A stretch of DNA of 64,000 nucleotides from a virus, in IMG/VR virus record IMGVR_UViG_3300023242_000004, positions 30,788-94,787 of that record; one strand, 5' to 3'. The notes beneath the pieces were generated by a model. That model did no database searches, was not told the DNA's origin, and saw only the letters and a list, made by a program, of their open reading frames with translations. This document shows positions 5,993 to 34,665 of the stretch, piece by piece (the first letter of the stretch is position 1; each line of letters opens with the position of its first letter). Position numbers and translations under genes: made by a program.

Positions 5993-7423
5993 TTAATACG
6001 AATTTATCGAATTACTTTGAATTATTACTGGAATTATTTCACTATATGCTGTACTGTTGACGTTATCACCACAAATAGTTGTGTAATTTTTTTCATTTTT
6101 TACTCTATAGTATAAAGTATCACCTACTGTTCCATTAGCAATGAAACCTTGACTATAATAACTAATACCAACTTGATAATCTGTAATACCACTATAATAT
6201 AATGAATTAAACGTATCACCAGTCGATACCTCTAGAATAAAATAACCATTTTGAATAGTTGGTGATTCTCTTATACCCCAAGATACAATTGGTGTGTTTG
6301 TGTTTAAACCCATAGAAGAGGTGGCTCTAGGAAAATACACTATTGTAATAATATCGTTAACTATCACTGTGCCTTGAAGAATAATTCTTTTTGGGTTAGT
6401 GATTGATTGGAAGTGGTCTATATTATTAGCTAACGTAGCTCCATTCAACATTACTATAACACTACCACCATCCTGTGGTGTTATTGAAGTATAAATTTCA
6501 TATTTATCAGTATTTGTGTTAAAATAAACCTCACTAGAGCCTTGACTATCTGTTACACCACTCACAATAGGTGTCTTTATATTTATGTTATCACTTACCA
6601 TATTGTAACCACCACTAGTTGAATAAATAACTGTAATTATGTCGTTAGAAAAAGTTTCACCGCTCAAATATACTACATTACCAGAAAAAGAATAATCTTC
6701 ACCTAGAGCTAAAACCAAACCATTTAACGTAACAACAAAATCACCAATAACACCATTTTGAACATTAAAGGTTACTTGCCCATCACTAGGTATAATTACT
6801 TGTTGCGTTAATTGACCTATTTCAGCTGAGTTGCTACTATTTTGGGTTAAAATAGGTGTTTCGGCTTGTTTCATCGCCATAAAATAATAATCAAATTTTT
6901 TGTTGTAAATACCATATTCTGTTCCGTAAATAAATGTTGATGTGTCGACATTTTTGTTTAATTTACCCAAAAAATCAGTACATACACCAAAAGAATAATA
7001 TGGTTTAATTATATATTCACCATCAAGTGTTAAACCACTAGATGGAACATATTGTGTAGTCATATTGGTAGCACTAAATGTTGAATAATTTAGTGTTTCT
7101 GATTTATATACAGGTGTTGAACTAAACCCACTAAAAATATCTGAATATTTATAGATTTCAAATCTAAACAACGCACTAGTGTCAATAAAAGAGCTAGTGT
7201 TTGCTGTAAAATCAAATGTTAGAGGAATATTTTGTGTAGCAGCGGTAATAATATAAGAAGTACCGCTAGTTGAACCAATACAATCTATTTTAGATGCACC
7301 ACTAAGTGAATATTGTGGGCTTTGAAAAACACAAATATCTGAACTCATGTTGACATTCAGAATATCTTTGTTTCTCACAGCACCATTTTCATTTTGAACA
7401 TATATTGGTTCTTGATGTCTCAT
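5993..7423 (-). CDS. Virion structural protein with two beta-rich repeats
   Basis: 476 aa, not assigned to a family. Two internal repeats are visible: one with VTLNGLVLALGEDYSF...NDIITVIYSTSG, the next with VMLNGATLANNIDHF...NDIITIVYFPRA. Each looks like a small beta-sandwich with an L-N-G turn and a D-I-I-T-V/I-Y strand, a layout common in fibre and adhesin shafts. The start overlaps the previous stop as TAATG, so the gene is translationally coupled to the 80-aa protein. Location among fibre genes suggests a structural role; nothing points to enzymatic activity. Confidence 0.45.
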   Translation of the reverse strand: MRHQEPIYVQNENGAVRNKDILNVNMSSDICVFQSPQYSLSGASKIDCIGSTSGTSYIITAATQNIPLTFDFTANTSSFIDTSALFRFEIYKYSDIFSGFSSTPVYKSETLNYSTFSATNMTTQYVPSSGLTLDGEYIIKPYYSFGVCTDFLGKLNKNVDTSTFIYGTEYGIYNKKFDYYFMAMKQAETPILTQNSSNSAEIGQLTQQVIIPSDGQVTFNVQNGVIGDFVVTLNGLVLALGEDYSFSGNVVYLSGETFSNDIITVIYSTSGGYNMVSDNINIKTPIVSGVTDSQGSSEVYFNTNTDKYEIYTSITPQDGGSVIVMLNGATLANNIDHFQSITNPKRIILQGTVIVNDIITIVYFPRATSSMGLNTNTPIVSWGIRESPTIQNGYFILEVSTGDTFNSLYYSGITDYQVGISYYSQGFIANGTVGDTLYYRVKNEKNYTTICGDNVNSTAYSEIIPVIIQSNSINSY

Positions 7424-23994: not shown

Positions 23995-25812
23995 TTATTT
24001 AACTCTAACAACAATATCGAACGTTGGGGTTTTAACTTCAAACATACTATTTGATTCTCCGAATAAAGTATAGTTTTCACCTAAATCAATTTGTCTAGTT
24101 GTTACGTCAAAATATTCTTGTGATATTTCATTTAAACTATAGTTACCATTAACTTTATTAAAAACTCTAACATCTAAAACATTTATAACACCTCCAACAT
24201 TGTTAATAACCTCTATTAATGGTGACATGTAAATACTATCACCCATTTGGTATTTACTAATATCCGTATAGTTTTTAACCTCGGTAATTACTTGACTGAT
24301 GATTTGCGATTGTGGCATTTTTTTATCAATAAGCAAATCCACCTCAAAAGACAAATTAATTATTCTACCATTACCTACTTGGACATAGTCATTTAACATT
24401 CTATAATCGGCCAAATAAGTTGTTATGTTTTCTCTTAAGGCACTAGTTGAATTATTTGATAATTTACCAGTTGAATCTAAACCTAAAATATAAATTTTAA
24501 CCTTATTTTGTTCCTCAGTTACACCGCATCTAAAAGGTATTCCAAAACTTCCAGGCATTTGAGCAATTCTAGTTTGATAATCTTTAATGGTTACAGCTCT
24601 GTTTTGAGACGAAAAATTATATTTAACCATATTCCTAATCTCCTCAACACTAGGAACGTCTTTACCACCTAACGCTGGAAATAAATTATTTACTTTTAAT
24701 GAACTCCTAACCGCTTGATTTATTGATTCGTTTGGACCATTGATTGTTAAATTTAAAAGACCAACAGAATTTAAAGTATTTGGACCTATATTACTATCAG
24801 CGCCACCACCTAATCTATATCTTATGAACATAGTAGTGTTTGCGTTTGGTACAATACCTAAAGATAAATTATTTATAAAATCACCAATTTGATTTACTAA
24901 TTCTTTATTAGTATCAAAATCACATAAACTACTAGTGTCTTGGGTACCAGCACCAAATGTAATTTTAGTAAAACCTAAATCAGTATATTCACTAATAAAT
25001 TTTTTATTGGTTGTTATCCATTTTCCTGGTGTTACACCAGAATTATCTGTTATTCTTGAATAATCAGAAATAAACACTTTGTCTTCAGCTAAAGCGCTCA
25101 TCTCAAACCATTTATTTTCTATGTTTGCAAAATCAGAAATATTAGGCGTGCCAACAAAATTAGTACCAGGAAGCATTATAATAGATTCAATACTAATCAC
25201 ATTATCTTCTGGTAATATAACTTCTAAAAATGGTCTAACATCAGATTGTGTGATAACTCTTTTATAAATTTTTGAATACCCATTTGTAACTATTTCCCTT
25301 TTTATTAAAGTATAGTTAACCAACGTACCATTAGAATTAAAATTTGGTAAAATTAATCTATTTGGTACTCCACCTATAGTAAATGGATTTGAGAAATCTA
25401 TATCATTTGTTGTTTCAAAAATTTTACCACCACCAGAAACTTGGGAACCAGTTGTGATAATTGGTGCATAAGAAAAGTTAAAGGTGTCACCTAATACAGG
25501 TACTATTATACTAAAATCAACAATAGTAATACTAGGTCTTTTTCCTGGGATTTTTAAACCAAAAGTTCTAGCCATAGATAAAACTGATTTTCTTTCTTTT
25601 GCATAATCTATTTGTGTTTCTTGAAACATTCTATCAGTATTAACTGACAGCATATCACCTACAGCTGCATTTAACTCTAGAAGCATCATACCAACACTAG
25701 CGTCATTAAAATCATTAAATATGTCTGGGTAATATTGTCTTACCATATCGACTAATTCTGCACGTATATCAGCAAAATTTCTTGCTGTATAATTTATTCC
25801 TTGATTTGCCAT
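23995..25812 (-). CDS. Baseplate wedge protein, gp6/baseplate-J-like
   Basis: 605 aa, close to the 660 residues of T4 gp6. The N-terminus (NYTARNFADIRAELVDMVRQ, then DFNDASVGMMLLELNAAVGD) is the characteristic opening of gp6-like/baseplate J proteins, in which the first helices build the wedge ring. Later segments such as NRAVTIKDYQTRIAQMPG fit the same family. It would form the inner baseplate ring with the gp25-like and gp53-like proteins. It starts 7 nt after the gp25-like stop, matching the usual 25-6 order of T4-like phages. Confidence 0.8.
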   Translation of the reverse strand: MANQGINYTARNFADIRAELVDMVRQYYPDIFNDFNDASVGMMLLELNAAVGDMLSVNTDRMFQETQIDYAKERKSVLSMARTFGLKIPGKRPSITIVDFSIIVPVLGDTFNFSYAPIITTGSQVSGGGKIFETTNDIDFSNPFTIGGVPNRLILPNFNSNGTLVNYTLIKREIVTNGYSKIYKRVITQSDVRPFLEVILPEDNVISIESIIMLPGTNFVGTPNISDFANIENKWFEMSALAEDKVFISDYSRITDNSGVTPGKWITTNKKFISEYTDLGFTKITFGAGTQDTSSLCDFDTNKELVNQIGDFINNLSLGIVPNANTTMFIRYRLGGGADSNIGPNTLNSVGLLNLTINGPNESINQAVRSSLKVNNLFPALGGKDVPSVEEIRNMVKYNFSSQNRAVTIKDYQTRIAQMPGSFGIPFRCGVTEEQNKVKIYILGLDSTGKLSNNSTSALRENITTYLADYRMLNDYVQVGNGRIINLSFEVDLLIDKKMPQSQIISQVITEVKNYTDISKYQMGDSIYMSPLIEVINNVGGVINVLDVRVFNKVNGNYSLNEISQEYFDVTTRQIDLGENYTLFGESNSMFEVKTPTFDIVVRVK

Positions 25813-26309: not shown

Positions 26310-26927
26310 TTAACTTGAACAACCCACGCACTCAAATTGACTCTCGGTAGGTTTTTCTACTTGTTTTTGTTTTGTCATATCAATAGCTAAATGTTTAGCT
26401 TTCATATCAACGGACTCACTCCTTAAATAATACTGACCAGTTTTAAGTCCTAATTTCCAAGACAAATTATGTGATGTAGTTAATTTACCAACAGTAGGTG
26501 TACTAAAGAAAATATTAAGACTTTGCGATTGGTCAATGAATGGTGCTCTATCAGCAGACATTTCGATTAACGCTTTTTGGGAAATTTCCCAAACTGTTTT
26601 ATACCTTTCTTTCATCTCTGAACTAATAACTGGTATGTTTTGAACACTACCATTATTTTTTATCAATTCACTAAGAATTTCTCTATTCCATAAACCTTCT
26701 GATTCTAAATCTCTAACTAGGTGTTTGTTTACCATAGCGAATTCACCACCAGTCACTCTTCGAACATAAAGATTTGAAGTGAACGGTTCGAAAGCTTCGT
26801 TTGAACCAATTACACGAGCAGAATTATGACTAACACAACCATTTTCCATTATATAATGATTCACGTTTGGTACTTCAATATCCCACGTAGGTTTTATATC
26901 ACCCTTAGTTATTTTTTTTATTTTCAT
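26310..26927 (-). CDS. nrdA: Ribonucleotide reductase alpha, part 3: C-intein plus C-terminal extein
   Basis: 205 aa. Residues 1-35 are a split-intein C-half (TWDIEVPNVNHYIM, ending CVSHN) directly followed by Ser+1. Residues 36-205 are the NrdA C-terminus: SARVIGSNEAFEPFTSNLY fits after PTAS of part 2, QYYLRS carries the Tyr pair of the radical-transfer path, and the end ECVGCSS supplies the CxxC redox arm. By itself it is not an enzyme; it must be joined in trans to part 2. It starts within the last codons of the homing-endonuclease fragment. Confidence 0.9.
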   Translation of the reverse strand: MKIKKITKGDIKPTWDIEVPNVNHYIMENGCVSHNSARVIGSNEAFEPFTSNLYVRRVTGGEFAMVNKHLVRDLESEGLWNREILSELIKNNGSVQNIPVISSEMKERYKTVWEISQKALIEMSADRAPFIDQSQSLNIFFSTPTVGKLTTSHNLSWKLGLKTGQYYLRSESVDMKAKHLAIDMTKQKQVEKPTESQFECVGCSS

Positions 26928-27268
26928 AATTTATTCTTTAAAATTTTATTTATTTTTTCTTTATTTATTTTTTCAGAATCCGAAGACCATAATTCTATAT
27001 AGTTACCCCATTTTAAATTACCATCGTGTTCACCCCATTTAATTATAAACATTTCTAAGGTGTGTTTACTTTTATCACAAAATTCTTGGTATTTTAATGG
27101 ACCATAAATTTCGCCATGATTAAAAATAAAACTCTCTAAAGTCCTACCACACTTTAATTTATGTAACCTTACTTTTTCAATAGATTCATTATTCATTAAA
27201 CCTTTTTTTAACCAATACTCAATTTTGAATGGTGATGGTTTGTTAGATATTTTTATATGTTTTATTAA
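26924..27268 (-). pseudogene. Decayed homing endonuclease fragment in the second nrdA gap
   Basis: The frame is open from 27268, just after a TAG, with no ATG until 27196, giving about 114 residues. It starts ISNKPSPFKIEYWLKKGL, which resembles the N-terminal module of Vsr-like homing endonucleases, and contains two copies of the G-x2-K-W/Y module also found in the intact enzyme at 32156 (HGEIYGPLKYQEF, GEHDGNLKW). The Vsr-like nuclease domain and a start codon for the full frame are missing. It occupies the exact slot where an intact enzyme sits in the other two gaps, so it is probably a remnant. Confidence 0.65.
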
Positions 27269-27295
27269 CTACGTACACAACACTTAAACGACCTA

Positions 27296-28282
27296 CTACT
27301 TTTCAAATATATTTAATATATCGTCCGTGGCTACCAAATCAATTACTTCAACCCATATTCCATCATTACCTCTTTTTACTTTGAATTTATGATTTTCAGT
27401 TGCTTCAAAAATTGACCCATCTTCCATTTCTATTTTATAGACAACAGAATGTGCGTTATACTTTATTTTATTAACTTCTTCATACCCATTAATTGTTTTA
27501 ACATTAAAAGCTTTTAAATCTAACCATTGTTGTAGATTCATACTTTCTAATTGTTCCCAATCAATATTGTTTTCTTCTAATATATCTTTAAATGATTTAA
27601 CACCACTTTCAGTATGAATCCTAGTATCAATAACTTGACAACTAGCTGTTGGTGGGCATGTTGTAACTAAAGAGTTTCTAACACCATATTTTTTAATGTC
27701 TTTTCTTAACCCTTTCCAATCATGCATACCAGATAAATTATCTTCAGTCAACCCCCACATTTGCCATTGGAAAATACCTTCAGAAATTGGTGAACCCTCG
27801 TAACCATCATACGTTAACCCAGTTTTTTTAGCTAAAGCACAAGATTCACTTAAAGCATTAAAATAAATCGTTTCAAATATGTCTTTATTTAATTGTCTAG
27901 CTATTTCACCAGTGAACGGTAATTTTAATATAGCAAACACATCTGCTAAACCTTGTATACCAATACCTAATGCTCTTTGTTCTAAACCACCTTTTCTACC
28001 TTCTGGTGTTGAATATTCGTTAACCTCTAAAGCTATGTTTAATGATTTTGTTATTGAACGTGCTACTTTACCCAATCCTATGAAGTCGTAAACTCCATCT
28101 ATAATATATTTTTGAACTGGGATGCTAGTAAGCGTACAAATAGCTGTTGTTTCAGCGTTGGTCGTCTCCATAATTTCCGAACAATTATGTACTAATATAT
28201 CATTACCAAAAAAATTATGGTTATCCTCAACAGTAATATCGTATACTGGTATTTTTTCGTTTAATTTTTCTATTTTTATCAT
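27296..28282 (-). CDS. nrdA: Ribonucleotide reductase alpha, part 2: C-intein, extein, N-intein
   Basis: 328 aa built of three pieces. Residues 1-33 are a C-intein (DITVEDNHNFFGNDILVHN). Residues 34-214 are the middle of NrdA: CSEIMETTNAETTAICTLTS holds both active-site cysteines, and the piece ends RNSLVTTCPPTAS. Residues 215-328 are a second N-intein starting CQVIDTRIHTESG with a block-B-like TENHKFKV. The protein therefore has to splice at both ends, with part 1 and with part 3. The GIY-YIG gene ends 5 nt upstream. Confidence 0.92.
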   Translation of the reverse strand: MIKIEKLNEKIPVYDITVEDNHNFFGNDILVHNCSEIMETTNAETTAICTLTSIPVQKYIIDGVYDFIGLGKVARSITKSLNIALEVNEYSTPEGRKGGLEQRALGIGIQGLADVFAILKLPFTGEIARQLNKDIFETIYFNALSESCALAKKTGLTYDGYEGSPISEGIFQWQMWGLTEDNLSGMHDWKGLRKDIKKYGVRNSLVTTCPPTASCQVIDTRIHTESGVKSFKDILEENNIDWEQLESMNLQQWLDLKAFNVKTINGYEEVNKIKYNAHSVVYKIEMEDGSIFEATENHKFKVKRGNDGIWVEVIDLVATDDILNIFEK

Positions 28283-28287
28283 TTATT

Positions 28288-29034
28288 TTAATTTTTAAAT
28301 TTCCATTTAAAACCACCAGCAGTGGTTCCTTGTTTACAAGCTCTACTAATTCCAGACTTATGTTTAATATTATTCTTTTCAGCTGCTTCAACAGTAGTTA
28401 AGTAAGTGTCAATTTCTTCACCATTTACACTCATTTTAACAACAGTTTTAGCGTTTGGGTTATTTTCTCTAGTATTATTAATAGACATCTTTTTTAAAGT
28501 TTCATCATTAGCTTTTCTACCTAAGTTCCAATGATTACCATTTATTTTAGCTTTATGTGATGGTCGTTCTTTTAAAGATAACCCATACATATTGTTATTA
28601 ACACCAGTAGCGTTTAACCTATGTTTTTCACGTATTTCTTCTTTATTTGGGTTATTAGTAAACGTATCACCACCTAACCCACCTTTAGTTAAATTGGTTA
28701 GAATACCACTTTTATTATGTCTAAAACCCATTATATCTATTAATAAACTTTCAATATCATAAGCGGTTTGTTCTTCTAACCCTTCAACTATTTTTATTAT
28801 TATGGGTTCTAACCCATTTTTTAATATTTGATTAATAACATTTAACTTATAAATATTATTTGTTAAATCTTTATTTTGTTCTTTTATTAACTTTAAATGT
28901 TTTTCTAACCTATTAGAACTATCTTTACCCTTTCCAATATAAAAAGGTTTATTTTTAAAAATATAATTTCCAAAATTATACTCACCAATTTCTCTAGGGT
29001 CCAAGTAAGCGTACACATAATATTTTTTTTCCAT
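28288..29034 (-). CDS. GIY-YIG homing endonuclease in the first nrdA gap
   Basis: About 248 aa from the ATG at 29034 (MEKKYYVYAYLD). The GIY-YIG signature is split as YVYAYLD (residues 5-11) and PFYIGKGK about 20 residues later, with a Glu in the following helix region. The middle (NNNMYGLSLKERPSHKAK, then NHWNLGRKANDETLKKMS) fits NUMOD3, and the end (SVNGEEIDTYLTTVEAAEKN ... GGFKWKFKN) is NUMOD1. It lies exactly between the two halves of the first nrdA intein and could spread that break by cutting intact nrdA. A 42-bp palindrome covers its start region. Confidence 0.85.
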   Translation of the reverse strand: MEKKYYVYAYLDPREIGEYNFGNYIFKNKPFYIGKGKDSSNRLEKHLKLIKEQNKDLTNNIYKLNVINQILKNGLEPIIIKIVEGLEEQTAYDIESLLIDIMGFRHNKSGILTNLTKGGLGGDTFTNNPNKEEIREKHRLNATGVNNNMYGLSLKERPSHKAKINGNHWNLGRKANDETLKKMSINNTRENNPNAKTVVKMSVNGEEIDTYLTTVEAAEKNNIKHKSGISRACKQGTTAGGFKWKFKN

Positions 29035-29075
29035 TGTGATTTCCATTATGTATATATACATAATGGAAATCACAA
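29034..29075. repeat. 42-bp perfect palindrome at the homing-endonuclease start
   Basis: Arms TTGTGATTTCCATTATGTATA and its exact reverse complement meet without a loop at 29054/29055. It fills the gap between the stop of nrdA part 1 (29081) and the endonuclease ATG, whose first base is the last base of the palindrome. As RNA it could form a stem (up to 21 bp less a few loop bases) that buries the upstream ATGs and abuts the real one. Confidence 0.85.
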
Positions 29076-29080
29076 AAAGA

Positions 29081-30655
29081 TTAAAATATTTCTAATACAT
29101 CAGTCTCAACTAAATCTTTAGCTAACACATATCCTCTATTTTTTGTGAATATTTGGTGTTCTGGTGTGCAAATAATATGTTTACCAGTTTCCTCATCAGT
29201 TATCTTTAAAACATCAGCTGACTCATTCATTAAGGCAGCATTTGTTATCTTTTTATATTCTGGTTTATTTGTTTCAATATTATAACTTAATACTTCTATA
29301 CCGTGTTCTACATTAAAATCGTTAACAACATCGGAAATATTAAAATCAACTTCCTTACCATGATATTTTGTTTTAATAATTGTTTTACCATCAACACACA
29401 AATTACTAGAGTGAATCATACCAATATTTTTTTGGTTGGATTTCTCATTAACGTGGTCTTTAAAGCACATATATGGCATACCAGTTTCAATTTGTGATTC
29501 CAAAATTTTAAGCCATAAATCATGTGCTTTAATTTTAGTACCAATACCCATCTCTACGGCCTTATTATATTCTTCCTCATACTCTTTACCATAAATCTCA
29601 TAAAATGGCTTTAAACCAGCTTCTTTTATGTCGTTTGGGCAGAATAAATACCAAGCATCATTTGTTTCAACAGCTCTCATAAAATTATTTGGAATCCATA
29701 GTGCTGAAAATAAGTCACGAGCCCTTAAAGTATCATCACCTGTCTTTTTTCTTATATCTAAAACGTCGAAAACATCTTTATGCCATGGTTCAATATAAAC
29801 AGCACAAGAGCCAGGTCTTTTACCTCTTTGGTTCCAGAATCTAAGTGTTTCATTAACAACTTTAAGGTATTTTAAAATACCACCAGCTTTTCCGTTTGAA
29901 TTACCCACATTACTTTCTTTTGAACGAATATTTGAAATAGCTAAACCTATACCTTCTGCTTTTGATGATGATATAGCAATTCTACCTAGGATATCTAATA
30001 ACCCTTCTGTTGAATCATCTGGAACAATCGATAAATTACATGAGGCAATTTGACCAATTGTTGTTCCTATGTTCATTTTTATAGGCGTTGCTGGGCTTTC
30101 TTTTTGATTACTTATGTAATTGTATTTTTCAATAAAATCTTCAGCGTTTTCTGTCACCATAAGAGCGACCCTAACATACATTTGTTGTGGTCTTTCTACT
30201 ATCACGCCATCTTTTGTTTTTAAAAGATATATGTCTTTAAGAGAACACCAACCAAAATAATCAAAATTAAAATCTCTAGAATAATCGATTGTTGATTCGA
30301 TTAACTCTATATTTTCTTTAACTTTATTAAAATACACATCATTCAATAAACCTAAATTATACATTTTTTTTATTGCCTTCATGAACGAGTCATCGGTTTC
30401 TTTATGTAATTTAGTTATGGATATATTTGCAGCCAATTTTGAATAGTCTGGATGATTCATAGCTAATGATTCAGATACGACTGAAATCAAATCATCTAAC
30501 TCATTTGTTGTCATATCATCAGCAATACCTTGCGTAACCTTTATAAACACCTCGTCAGCGTTAACTTTTAACCCTTCGGATTGTTTTTTTATTCTGGTAA
30601 GAATTTTATTTGGGTTAAAATCTATTTTATTACCGTTTCTTTTTATTACTTGCAT
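29081..30655 (-). CDS. nrdA: Ribonucleotide reductase alpha, part 1: N-terminal extein plus N-intein
   Basis: 524 aa. Residues 1-90 are the ATP-cone allosteric domain (VIKRNGNKIDFNPNK). The catalytic barrel follows, with Cys206 in GQIASCNLSIVP matching E. coli C225, and it ends NIGMIHSSNL at residue 419. Residues 420-524 are a split-intein N-half beginning CVDGKTIIKTKYHG with a block-B-like ICTPEHQIF. The next extein residue, supplied by part 2, is the cysteine equivalent to the thiyl-radical Cys439. The three exteins sum to about 770 aa, a normal NrdA. It lies 17 nt downstream of nrdB. Confidence 0.93.
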   Translation of the reverse strand: MQVIKRNGNKIDFNPNKILTRIKKQSEGLKVNADEVFIKVTQGIADDMTTNELDDLISVVSESLAMNHPDYSKLAANISITKLHKETDDSFMKAIKKMYNLGLLNDVYFNKVKENIELIESTIDYSRDFNFDYFGWCSLKDIYLLKTKDGVIVERPQQMYVRVALMVTENAEDFIEKYNYISNQKESPATPIKMNIGTTIGQIASCNLSIVPDDSTEGLLDILGRIAISSSKAEGIGLAISNIRSKESNVGNSNGKAGGILKYLKVVNETLRFWNQRGKRPGSCAVYIEPWHKDVFDVLDIRKKTGDDTLRARDLFSALWIPNNFMRAVETNDAWYLFCPNDIKEAGLKPFYEIYGKEYEEEYNKAVEMGIGTKIKAHDLWLKILESQIETGMPYMCFKDHVNEKSNQKNIGMIHSSNLCVDGKTIIKTKYHGKEVDFNISDVVNDFNVEHGIEVLSYNIETNKPEYKKITNAALMNESADVLKITDEETGKHIICTPEHQIFTKNRGYVLAKDLVETDVLEIF

Positions 30656-31661: not shown

Positions 31662-32150
31662 TTATTGTTGAGTTGGGCTATTTAATATAGTGTTTCTGTT
31701 TTGAGCGGCCGCTAATACTGTATTAACTCTGTTTTGGTTTACTTCGTCTTTATCCATCTTATGTTCCGTTTGACTTCTAGCGCCTTTACTTTTACCCATA
31801 TCTATTTGAATTTTTGCGTTATCAAATCTTATATCTTGAAAGATAATACCATCTTTACCAAATCTAGATTTAAGTATCGCCATTGTCGCAGTACCAGCTT
31901 CTTTTTGGTCTAAGTTTTTCGCTATAGACACAATAAAGTGACCAATTTGACCTTTTTTAATTGAACCACCTATTTGGTTAGCTTCAACCACATCAGCCGA
32001 AATAGAGCTGTTGTGTGTGTAAATATCGTTACCATAAAACATATGTGTGTCTTCTACGGTGATATCAATAGTGTCTTCCTCACCAATTAACTCAATTGAT
32101 TCGATTTCATCCAAATCAAAATTACTTAAATCTAAATTGTGTTTTACCAT
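31662..32150 (-). CDS. Replicative helicase, part 2: C-intein plus C-terminal extein
   Basis: About 162 aa from the ATG at 32150, 5 nt after the endonuclease stop; a 9-residue longer frame from 32177 overlaps that gene. Residues 1-47 are the C-intein (DITVEDTHMFYGNDIYTHN), then Ser+1. The extein continues the RecA core of a gp41/DnaB helicase: SSISADVVEANQIGG, KKGQIGHFIVSIAK and ILKSRFGKDG (arginine-finger region). It must be spliced to the N-terminal part encoded at 33337-34665. The intein position and motifs resemble the known gp41-1-type split inteins. Confidence 0.9.
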   Translation of the reverse strand: MVKHNLDLSNFDLDEIESIELIGEEDTIDITVEDTHMFYGNDIYTHNSSISADVVEANQIGGSIKKGQIGHFIVSIAKNLDQKEAGTATMAILKSRFGKDGIIFQDIRFDNAKIQIDMGKSKGARSQTEHKMDKDEVNQNRVNTVLAAAQNRNTILNSPTQQ

Positions 32151-32155
32151 TTTTT

Positions 32156-33277
32156 TTATTTTAAAAAGTTTAAACATTTCTCTAATGTTTTTTCTTTATT
32201 TATTTTGTATTCACTTTCTTTAATCCTTAATATTTTATAACCCTTACCAATTAAAAACTCATCTCTTACCATATCTTTAGATTTTTGTTCTGGTTTAGAA
32301 TGCCAATAATCACCATCAAACTCAATTATTTTATCACCACATTTGAAATCGACAAGTATAGTAAAAATATTTTTTATGTTAACGTAGAAATACTCTTCAC
32401 CATTTAATTCCGCAAATTTAACATTAATTTTATCAATATCTGTTAATTTATTAAATAATAACCAAAATAATTCCTGTGATATCTTACTATAATAGACACC
32501 ACTTCTAAATTGTTTATCTAAAAACTCAATAAATTTTATTTTACCAACTTTACAACCATATCTATCGATAAATGATTGTAATGACGTTTTTGACATAGTG
32601 GTACAATATTCTAACCATTTAACTTTACCATGTTTATCACCATATAAATCAATAAAATATTTTTCACTAAATCGATATTTTTGTTGGTTGTTACGTTTTA
32701 TCCATTTTTGATAACCAACTTTAACCCCATCTCTATCTTGATATTCAACTAAAGTTCTACCATTTCTATATGGTTTAATTTTCCTACGTTCTTTTTGGGT
32801 CTCAATTTTCTTAGTTAAACGTTCTTGCCATTTTTTAGTACCTTCAGTCTCACCATATCTTTCAATGCAAGCTTCAAATCCCCAAGGTGTTTTTGAATTA
32901 ACTAAATATTCAGTATATTTATTAACCCCATCTTCTTTACCATATTTTTTAATATAACCATCTAACGTATGTGCAAATTTAACATATAATTCTGATTTAA
33001 CCAATTCAACATTTTCTTTACCATACCTAATTTCTAAAGCATATTCAGAAGCGATATCATTTTTTAAAACGTTGATGATGATATTAAGTCTTTCTAACCA
33101 ATCACCATCAACATTAAATTTAATAAAATCATGTATATTTTTCATTCTATTCTTAATTCTTACATTATCGTAAACTTCTAATATTTTACTTATTTCAGTC
33201 TTTTGACATTCTGTAACTTTAGAAATATCAATATCCCCAAATATTTTTCTACTTAATAATTTTTCTATAGTTATCAT
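32156..33277 (-). CDS. Vsr-like (EDxHD-type) homing endonuclease in the helicase gap
   Basis: 373 aa. The C-terminal 55 residues carry EFDGDYWHSKPEQ and GYKILRIKESEY, a Vsr/PD-(D/E)XK-like nuclease core like the endonuclease family found beside split inteins in marine metagenomes. The central part has about five modules of the form YG-x3-G-x2-K-(W/Y)-x-E (YGKEDGVNKYTEY, YGETEGTKKWQER, YGDKHGKVKWLEY and so on), probably DNA-binding repeats. It sits exactly between the two helicase halves and would drive homing of the break. A short inverted repeat precedes the start. Confidence 0.82.
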   Translation of the reverse strand: MITIEKLLSRKIFGDIDISKVTECQKTEISKILEVYDNVRIKNRMKNIHDFIKFNVDGDWLERLNIIINVLKNDIASEYALEIRYGKENVELVKSELYVKFAHTLDGYIKKYGKEDGVNKYTEYLVNSKTPWGFEACIERYGETEGTKKWQERLTKKIETQKERRKIKPYRNGRTLVEYQDRDGVKVGYQKWIKRNNQQKYRFSEKYFIDLYGDKHGKVKWLEYCTTMSKTSLQSFIDRYGCKVGKIKFIEFLDKQFRSGVYYSKISQELFWLLFNKLTDIDKINVKFAELNGEEYFYVNIKNIFTILVDFKCGDKIIEFDGDYWHSKPEQKSKDMVRDEFLIGKGYKILRIKESEYKINKEKTLEKCLNFLK

Positions 33278-33280
33278 ATC

Positions 33281-33302
33281 TTTTCATATAAATATATGAA
33301 AA
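33281..33302. repeat. Inverted repeat before the Vsr-like endonuclease start
   Basis: TTTTCATATA, 2 nt, TATATGAAAA: a 10-bp stem ending 4 nt before the ATG at 33277. It contains a TATTTATA octamer (33287-33294). The flanking GTGATTTTCAT resembles the arm GTGATTTCCAT of the palindrome before the other intact homing endonuclease. Confidence 0.6.
33287..33294 (-). promoter_or_regulatory. TATTTATA motif before the Vsr-like endonuclease
   Basis: Coding-strand ATATTTATATG, 9 nt before the ATG at 33277 and embedded in the inverted repeat. Confidence 0.4.
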
Positions 33303-33336
33303 TCACATAAAAAGTAAACAGCAATAGAAAAAAAAA

Positions 33337-34665
33337 TTATTTTTTGGTTAATAAACTATCACCAACTGTTAACCCACTCTCAATAGATAAAAACTTACCA
33401 TCAGAAGTTGGGAAAAAATGTTTTTTAGCTACTTTAATTTCCTTACCCGATTTTAATTTAATTTTATAAACTGGTTGTTTCGCAATAGGGAAAATATGTG
33501 ATATTGTTTTATATCCATCATGAGTCAAAATTTCGTCACCTAATACAGCATCTTTTATCTCAATAAGTCCATTATTTTTCGTAACTATCTTAGTATCAAG
33601 TGAAACACATCTATTACCTTGAACAGCCGTCCATCCAGCTATATCTAGTTCAGATAAAAGCGTTTCAAATTGTCGCATAACACTACCCTCACCAGCGTTA
33701 ATATCATCAAATTTTTTCGATGGTTCGACACAATCAATATAATCCAATAAAATTATATCTGGTCTAAAACCTTGTGCTATCAACTTTCTAATATATTGTC
33801 TAATCATTGGAATTGTAGTACCATCGCTAGAAAACTTTTTAAGTTTAAGATTTTCATGAGGTAATTTTGCAGCAATTTCAAATATTTCTTCTTTGTGTAA
33901 ACTTAAACTATTTAGTTCATACCCAGAAGAACAAGCTAAATGTTTTCTTTGGATAACTTTTGGGTTGTCTTCGAAAAATATTTGTAAAACTTTATAACCA
34001 TCTGCCATTGCGGTGTTAGCTAATTTTGTAATCATGGTTGTTTTTCCAACACCGAATGGTGCTAATATTACAGCTAACTCACCTCTGGATAACCCACCAT
34101 CCATGACTTCATCTAAACCTTTTATCCCAGTAGCAATTGGTTTTCTAAAATCATCAACTAAAACATGTTCTATACCATCAAAAACGTTAAAACCATCATC
34201 TTTAGCATCACCATGCTCAAGTGCTTTTCTTATAATAGCTTCAACTTGTTCGTAATCTTCAAGGTTACCTCGTTCGATGATTTTATTAACTTGCATCATC
34301 GATTTTCTCATTTCTTGTTGTTTACAAAACCTCATCGCCATATCTTGGACTTTCAAGGTATCGTTCAAATCAGCTTCTTGAACTTTACGTAGTTGGCTGA
34401 TAACGTATTTTCTTTGGTATTCGTCCTTAACATCTTCTAGTAACCTGAATTCAAGACTACCAACATCTGGGACAATATCATCGGTAACCTTTGCATCTTT
34501 TATTGTTGCAACTATTACTCGTAAATACTGGTCTTCAAAGTAGTTTGGGTCAACGATATCTAATATAGAATTTGCAAACTTTCTATCCGTTAAAAATTGC
34601 GCTATAAGCCTTAATTGGTAGTCGTGTCCTAAATAACCAAAACTATTTTTATCTATTTTTGTCAT
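33337..34665 (-). CDS. Replicative helicase, part 1: N-terminal extein plus N-intein
   Basis: 442 aa. Residues 1-352 are a gp41/DnaB-type helicase: N-terminal helical domain, a DnaB-like hinge ending in TGIKGLDEVMDGGLSRGEL, Walker A in APFGVGKTT, Walker B in DIILLDYID, and a final WTAVQGNR. Residues 353-442 are an N-intein beginning CVSLDTKIVTKNNG with block B near KKHFFPTSDG, then a stop. The helicase unwinds DNA at the fork with the primase encoded at 659-1615. Without the partner at 31662-32150 it lacks half of the ATPase core. Confidence 0.92.
   Translation of the reverse strand: MTKIDKNSFGYLGHDYQLRLIAQFLTDRKFANSILDIVDPNYFEDQYLRVIVATIKDAKVTDDIVPDVGSLEFRLLEDVKDEYQRKYVISQLRKVQEADLNDTLKVQDMAMRFCKQQEMRKSMMQVNKIIERGNLEDYEQVEAIIRKALEHGDAKDDGFNVFDGIEHVLVDDFRKPIATGIKGLDEVMDGGLSRGELAVILAPFGVGKTTMITKLANTAMADGYKVLQIFFEDNPKVIQRKHLACSSGYELNSLSLHKEEIFEIAAKLPHENLKLKKFSSDGTTIPMIRQYIRKLIAQGFRPDIILLDYIDCVEPSKKFDDINAGEGSVMRQFETLLSELDIAGWTAVQGNRCVSLDTKIVTKNNGLIEIKDAVLGDEILTHDGYKTISHIFPIAKQPVYKIKLKSGKEIKVAKKHFFPTSDGKFLSIESGLTVGDSLLTKK

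What the first reader, a model, noticed from the sequence alone, without database searches (positions are those of the whole stretch)
31662..34665. gp41/DnaB-type helicase split by a gp41-1-like intein with an intact endonuclease in the gap
The N-part ends WTAVQGNR followed by CVSLDT (N-intein, 90 aa). The C-part starts with a 47-aa C-intein ending YTHN followed by SSISAD, restoring the conserved QGNR-SSIS run. Intein motifs (GDEILTHDGY, KKHFFPT) resemble the fast-splicing gp41-1 family. The gap holds a 373-aa Vsr-like endonuclease. The split falls between Walker B and the arginine-finger region, so neither half can be active alone.
Basis: partly seen in the sequence, partly recalled or inferred. 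Interest (0 to 1): 0.75.

Follow-up and report, generated by a model that had tools for sequence, protein, structure and literature searches.

The report
Split-intein phage helicase with homing endonuclease
A phage's DNA-unwinding enzyme is encoded in two pieces, each ending in half of a self-splicing protein tag, with a DNA-cutting "homing" gene sitting between them: a clean new example of a known kind of mobile element, notable because the same phage's ribonucleotide reductase, one gene further on, is cut into three pieces in the same way.

Summary
A T4 gp41/DnaB-type helicase gene is interrupted, directly after the QGNR motif, by an insert of exactly 1,600 bp (32010-33609). The insert holds an N-intein (90 aa), a 373-aa EDxHD/Vsr-like homing endonuclease and a C-intein (47 aa). 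A close relative (L008) has the gene uninterrupted, with the two flanks abutting at the predicted base (95.0% and 90.5% DNA identity).

This is a "fractured gene" of the kind named by Dassa et al. 2009. I found 45 distinct occupied helicase alleles at this site: 32 carry the same endonuclease family, 9 have an empty gap and 4 hold an unclassified short ORF. In some phage pairs synonymous divergence is several-fold lower in the element than in the helicase around it; another pair shows the reverse. Both indicate horizontal movement.

Correction: the insertion point is not that of gp41-1, which sits three residues downstream; this one fits the gp41-8-type site.

Close relatives carry different subsets of these elements or have lost the endonucleases. 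Splicing and cleavage are inferred, not shown.

The parts
33610..34665 (-). Helicase N-extein, aa 1-352, ends WTAVQGNR; Walker A (APFGVGKTT), Walker B (IILLDYID), motif H3
   Evidence: Pfam DnaB_C 4e-11; Foldseek best hit T4 gp41 8gao E=1e-18
33340..33609 (-). N-intein, 90 aa, C1...KHFFPT...LLTKK (stop 33337-33339)
   Evidence: PDB 6qaz gp41-1, E=1.5e-11; Cys1, GD, ILT, His and FP invariant or nearly so in 15 alleles
32010..33609 (-). Whole mobile element (N-intein + endonuclease gene + C-intein), 1,600 bp, 25.4% GC against 33-34% in the flanking helicase exons
   Evidence: DNA alignment with intein-free L008, flanks abut at 7056|7057; GC
32156..33277 (-). EDxHD/Vsr-like homing endonuclease, 373 aa; helical repeats with a [YW]G...G..K[WYF] core at about aa 100-256, nuclease domain about aa 286-373 with D310, E319, D321, H326, D335 invariant
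   Evidence: MTES_1575/DUF559; 3r3p I-Bth0305I (phmmer E=0.0045; Foldseek prob 1.00)
32010..32150 (-). C-intein, 47 aa, MVKHNLDLSNF...HMFYGNDIYTHN, start codon just beyond the endonuclease stop codon
   Evidence: 6qaz E=9e-4; conserved start and HN terminus in 18 alleles
31662..32009 (-). Helicase C-extein, SSISADVVE..., motif H4 LKSRFGKDG
29399..30655 (-). nrdA N-extein (419 aa), ends HSSNL; next residue in the ligated protein is the NLC cysteine
   Evidence: Ribonuc_red_lgC 3e-67
29081..29398 (-). nrdA split intein 1, N-half (CVDGKT...DVLEIF)
   Evidence: Intein_splicing 1.8e-6
28288..29073 (-). GIY-YIG homing endonuclease, 261 aa, in the gap of nrdA split intein 1
   Evidence: LEM-3_GIY-YIG 3.5e-12; PHROG homing endonuclease 2.5e-18
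28184..28282 (-). nrdA split intein 1, C-half (33 aa, ends LVHN, +1 Cys)
   Evidence: Intein_splicing 9e-11
27641..28183 (-). nrdA middle extein, CSEIM...TCPPTAS
   Evidence: Ribonuc_red_lgC 8e-52 over the ORF
27296..27640 (-). nrdA split intein 2, N-half (CQVIDT...ILNIFEK)
26924..27196 (-). Remnant of an endonuclease, 90 aa; both ends match a 366-aa ORF at the same site in L112 (66% and 81%), middle including the nuclease core deleted
   Evidence: also 35% identity to the repeats of the helicase endonuclease
26823..26927 (-). nrdA split intein 2, C-half (35 aa, ends CVSHN, +1 Ser)
26310..26822 (-). nrdA C-extein, SARVIGSNE...ECVGCSS
   Evidence: PHROG RNR large subunit 1.4e-20

Best explanation
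It is a fractured gene: a mobile element made of a class 1 split intein (Cys1, His-Asn terminus, Ser+1) and a free-standing EDxHD/Vsr-like homing endonuclease gene, inserted in the helicase gene straight after the Gln-sensor motif QxNR. The two helicase pieces are translated separately. The N- and C-intein halves associate, excise themselves and join R352 to Ser, restoring a T4 gp41-like helicase. In mixed infections the endonuclease cuts helicase alleles that lack the insert, and repair from the occupied copy transfers the element. Shown here: exact boundaries, the empty site, recurrence, horizontal movement, purifying selection on the endonuclease, conserved catalytic residues. Inferred: trans-splicing, cleavage of the empty site, repair-mediated copying.
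For: Exact empty site in L008. The window's helicase nests inside a clade of intein-free alleles (branch with L008 100/97), and L023 is a separate occupied branch beside an empty one. There are 45 distinct occupied alleles at the same site, 32 with the same endonuclease family. Between L038/L043 and L043/L044, dS is 0.69-1.29 in the helicase N-extein but 0.09-0.10 in the endonuclease; between L043/L045 the helicase is the more similar part. Endonuclease dN/dS is 0.16-0.31. The motif D310...E319-F-D321-G-D-Y-W-H326...D335 is invariant in 18 proteins. Structure match to I-Bth0305I. C1, HN and S+1 are invariant. Insert GC is 25.4% against 33-34% in the flanking exons.
Against: No splicing or cleavage was measured. 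No donor close to the window's own element was found (nearest endonuclease 62% identical). The window's flanks show no sign of co-conversion: 48 nt around the site are identical to L008. The endonuclease model has low pTM (0.37), so its match rests on the nuclease domain alone.
Confidence: 0.93

Rival explanations
1. The split intein is resident and the endonuclease is a separate selfish gene that invades and leaves the gap on its own, so the mobile unit is the endonuclease gene rather than the whole 1,600-bp element.
For: In L041/L044, L043/L044 and L038/L044 the endonuclease is 94-100% identical while the flanking intein halves are about 88-93%. Nine alleles keep the split intein with no ORF in the gap. 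L104 has a GIY-YIG gene at nrdA site 1 where L105 has none.
Against: In the window lineage the whole unit, inteins included, is absent from its nearest relatives, so here the full element moved. Loss of the endonuclease explains empty gaps as well.
Confidence: 0.2
2. The helicase is assembled by non-covalent association of the two fragments (as reported for Aeromonas phage Aeh1 NrdA split by mobE), and the intein halves are dead.
For: Phage proteins split by a homing endonuclease without an intein can work (Aeh1 nrdA, PMC3653736).
Against: All splicing residues are conserved, and the N-inteins show dN/dS of about 0.1 to 0.3 where it can be computed. Dead inteins would not be expected to keep Cys1 and the HN/Ser junction across 15-18 alleles.
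Confidence: 0.04
3. A metagenome assembly error or a broken helicase pseudogene.
For: Only one contig found here carries this exact helicase allele.
Against: Open frames, a perfect empty-site join and recurrence in 45 alleles. Both exteins are 92-96% identical to the intact L008 helicase. The nrdA part is also present at 100% identity in a second contig, L103.
Confidence: 0.02

Closest known systems
Fractured genes of Dassa et al. 2009 (doi 10.1093/nar/gkp095; paper itself not held, known from citing papers and own knowledge)
   Same: Gene broken by a split intein with a free-standing Vsr-like homing endonuclease gene between the halves; gp41 helicase and nrdA are among the host genes
   Different: Different phage lineage; here two nearby genes carry three such insertions, one with a GIY-YIG endonuclease and one with a deleted endonuclease
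gp41-1 split intein (PDB 6qaz, 6riz)
   Same: Class 1, Cys1 and Ser+1; 88+37 aa against 90+47 aa here; N-half 38%, C-half 51% identity
   Different: gp41-1 is inserted after TRSGY, three residues downstream of this site; shorter C-half
gp41-8 split intein
   Same: As I recall, inserted in SQLNR|SAVEE, the same QxNR|S position; N-half 48%, C-half 56% identity (sequence from memory); Cys1 and Ser+1 (PMC11766414)
   Different: Not verified against a held sequence record
I-Bth0305I, EDxHD homing endonuclease (PDB 3r3p)
   Same: C-terminal nuclease domain, best hit by sequence and by fold
   Different: I-Bth0305I is labelled a mobile intron protein in the PDB; this one lies between split-intein halves
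CapR/DUF723-like repeat + EDxHD/Vsr homing endonucleases of phage group II introns (PMC12350094)
   Same: Several repeats followed by a C-terminal EDxHD/Vsr-like domain
   Different: Those sit in introns; similarity of the repeats judged by layout only, no Pfam CapR or DUF723 hit here

Membership tests
Fractured gene (split intein plus free-standing homing endonuclease) | Host gene in two ORFs, joined by N- and C-intein halves at one conserved site | tested here: met
Fractured gene (split intein plus free-standing homing endonuclease) | Free-standing endonuclease ORF between the halves | tested here: met
Fractured gene (split intein plus free-standing homing endonuclease) | Intein-free alleles exist with an exact empty site | tested here: met
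Fractured gene (split intein plus free-standing homing endonuclease) | Protein trans-splicing takes place | not testable with these tools
   Only conservation of splicing residues could be shown
EDxHD/Vsr-like homing endonuclease | Catalytic residues and fold of I-Bth0305I | tested here: met
   Invariant D310/E319/D321/H326/D335; 3r3p best hit, prob 1.00, phmmer 0.0045
EDxHD/Vsr-like homing endonuclease | Cuts the empty target site | not testable with these tools
   No assay
gp41-1 intein allele | Same insertion site (TRSGY|S) | tested here: not met
   Insertion is three residues upstream, after QGNR (TRSGY from PMC7895425)
gp41-8 intein allele | Same insertion site and highest sequence identity | tested here: inconclusive
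   48% and 56% identity, better than gp41-1, but the gp41-8 sequence and site were from memory
T4 gp41/DnaB-type replicative helicase | DnaB_C domain, gp41 fold, neighbours typical of a T4-like replication block | tested here: met
   RecA-like (UvsX), gp32-like, 5'-3' exonuclease and ribonucleotide reductase genes beside it

The most novel reading that the evidence does not exclude
The phage makes two enzymes of its DNA replication and nucleotide supply, helicase and ribonucleotide reductase large subunit, from five separate polypeptides by three mutually orthogonal split inteins working at once. The reductase needs two trans-splicing events in one protein, one of them directly before the NLC cysteine. 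The three gaps show three stages of one life cycle: intact EDxHD endonuclease, intact GIY-YIG endonuclease, deleted endonuclease.
Probability: 0.6. Interest if true: 0.55.

Novelty: new member of a known kind. Interest (0 to 1): 0.4.

Why it matters
It adds a phage lineage to the fractured-gene catalogue, with a close intein-free relative that fixes the element's boundaries to the base. The family of about 45 helicase alleles gives a comparative series (endonuclease intact, truncated, lost) and a source of new naturally split inteins of about 90+47 aa. The three-piece reductase offers a natural test of split-intein orthogonality, so far studied in engineered assemblies (for example PMC7090010).

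Tried and rejected
Search of bacterial and archaeal genomes with the C-part profile found no relative, so the element looks phage-bound at this sensitivity. Cultured-phage records hold no helicase above 60% identity and no match covering 80% of this endonuclease, so no named phage was found to carry this element.

The idea that the intein is gp41-1 itself was dropped after the site comparison. Assembly error was dropped. Co-conversion tracts around the window's insert were looked for and not seen. Ser+1 codon use was noted: TCN in the 15 other occupied alleles shown, AGY in the window and in seven empty alleles; it may only follow ancestry, so no weight is put on it.

PHROGs gave nothing for the endonuclease. 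The papers of Dassa 2009, Taylor 2011 and Carvajal-Vallejos 2012 are not held, so their content is taken from citing papers and own knowledge.

Full report
Observation. On the - strand of the window the helicase N-part (33337-34665), endonuclease (32156-33277) and C-part (31662-32177) lie in that order. The N-part is 352 aa of extein plus a 90-aa N-intein. The C-part carries a 47-aa C-intein when counted from its second ATG at 32150, the start that relatives share; from the first ATG the ORF overlaps the endonuclease by 22 nt. The intein halves match gp41-1 in the PDB (E=1.5e-11 and 9e-4). The N-part model matches T4 gp41 best of all solved structures (8gao, E=1e-18).

Boundaries. Fifteen relatives came back from viral contigs, 14 of them at 67-91% identity, and those 14 carry the uninterrupted run QGNRSSI. 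Against L008 the flanks align at 95.0% and 90.5% DNA identity and abut at L008 7056|7057, which puts the insert at exactly 32010-33609, 1,600 bp. The insert has 25.4% GC against 33-34% in the helicase exons. In the helicase tree the window is the sister of L008 (100/97) inside a clade that is otherwise intein-free except for one other occupied allele, L023. The simplest reading is recent gain.

The endonuclease. Pfam assigns MTES_1575 and DUF559 to all 18 aligned members. The only PDB sequence hit is 3r3p, the catalytic domain of I-Bth0305I, which is also the best fold hit (probability 1.00, E=0.044, TM 0.57 on the target). D310, E319, D321, H326 and D335 are invariant; that these are the catalytic residues is my reading of the EDxHD motif. 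Upstream of the nuclease lie about five helical repeats with a [YW]G...G..K[WYF] core. PMC12350094 describes a similar layout, CapR/DUF723-like repeats before an EDxHD/Vsr domain, in endonucleases of phage group II introns.

Recurrence and movement. Of 81 stretches examined around endonuclease relatives (80 loci plus this window), 38 had a helicase N-part, a nuclease and a C-part by pattern; a few of these paired parts of neighbouring elements. A wider census found 45 distinct helicase alleles split at this site: 32 with an EDxHD ORF (two of them truncated to 88 and 117 aa), 9 with no ORF in the gap and 4 with a short unclassified ORF. Between L038/L043 and L043/L044 the helicase N-extein has dS 0.69-1.29 while the endonuclease has dS 0.09-0.10. 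Between L043 and L045 the helicase is 83-100% identical around the site while the element is 62-88%. Discordance in both directions means the element moves between phages independently of its host gene. In several pairs the endonuclease is also more alike than the intein halves around it, so the endonuclease gene may sometimes be exchanged alone. Endonuclease dN/dS is 0.16-0.31.

Which intein. The native upstream residues of gp41-1 are TRSGY (PMC7895425). Aligned through Prochlorococcus phage P-SSM7 gp41, that point lies three residues downstream of this insertion. I therefore call it gp41-8-type, provisionally.

Mechanism. Translation yields two helicase fragments. The intein halves associate and splice, joining R352 to Ser. 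The cut separates Walker A, Walker B and the H3 Gln motif from the H4 LKSRFG region, so each fragment alone probably lacks a complete ATPase site (inference from DnaB/gp41 biochemistry). The endonuclease spreads the element by cutting empty helicase alleles (inference from the family).

Beyond the finding. The nearby nrdA gene, separated from the helicase only by nrdB, is broken twice: 29081-30655, 27296-28282 and 26310-26927 are its three pieces. Insert 1 (28184-29398) sits between HSSNL and CSEIM and carries a GIY-YIG endonuclease. Insert 2 (26823-27640) sits between PPTAS and SARVIG and carries a 90-aa remnant whose two ends match a 366-aa ORF at the same site in L112, so it is an internally deleted endonuclease. 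The contig that holds L008 and L113 is 99.1% identical over nrdB and nrdA up to site 2, shares insert 1, and lacks both insert 2 and the helicase insert. L105-L107 keep all three split inteins with the endonucleases gone. Three-piece reductases recur, for example in L109, L110 and L114. One more intein, a mini-intein in a single ORF, lies in the P-loop of a gp46/Rad50-like gene outside the window (G000 near 24.4 kb; gene named from its sequence features, not from a family search).

Verdict. A real, probably active element of a known kind. The helicase alone is a new member of the fractured-gene class. The combination with a doubly fractured reductase, and relatives with different subsets of insertions, is what raises it above routine. 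PMC3653736 reports a phage nrdA with two putative inteins and cites seven intein-interrupted nrdA genes from ocean metagenomes, so multiple invasion of nrdA as such is not new.

Noticed in passing
26310-30655 (-): Ribonucleotide reductase large subunit encoded in three pieces by two split inteins; one gap holds a GIY-YIG endonuclease, the other a deleted endonuclease.
   Followed up: yes
L113 / L008 (contig IMGVR_UViG_3300037294_000405): Relative 99.1% identical in nrdB-nrdA but lacking nrdA insert 2 and the helicase insert; shares nrdA insert 1.
   Followed up: yes
L105-L107, L109, L110, L114: Relatives in which split inteins persist after loss of the endonucleases in their gaps (all three sites in L105-L107; both nrdA sites in the others).
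   Followed up: partly
L004 (G000:C1 about 24364-24681, outside the window): Mini-intein in one ORF in the P-loop of a gp46/Rad50-like protein, NQGGK|C...VSHN|TTLT.
   Followed up: partly
L066-L067, L072-L084, L087-L102: Many relatives of the endonuclease lie directly upstream of ORFs that begin inside an intein (from about intein residue 21), as if these inteins were split close to their N-terminus; Vibrio phage Va1 (L184) has such a nuclease in a gene annotated as terminase.
   Followed up: no
L061-L065, L068, L085, L086: EDxHD endonucleases in split genes at a KPSG|TSSLV site, probably another ribonucleotide reductase position.
   Followed up: no
L024, L030, L031, L033, L050, L105: Helicase N-part ORFs of about 770-820 aa, roughly 330-380 aa longer than the window's; in L105 an extra N-intein-like hit lies at aa 215-282, so a second intein near the P-loop is likely.
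   Followed up: no
L038, L041, L043, L044: Endonuclease gene more conserved than the intein halves beside it, a hint that it is exchanged separately.
   Followed up: partly
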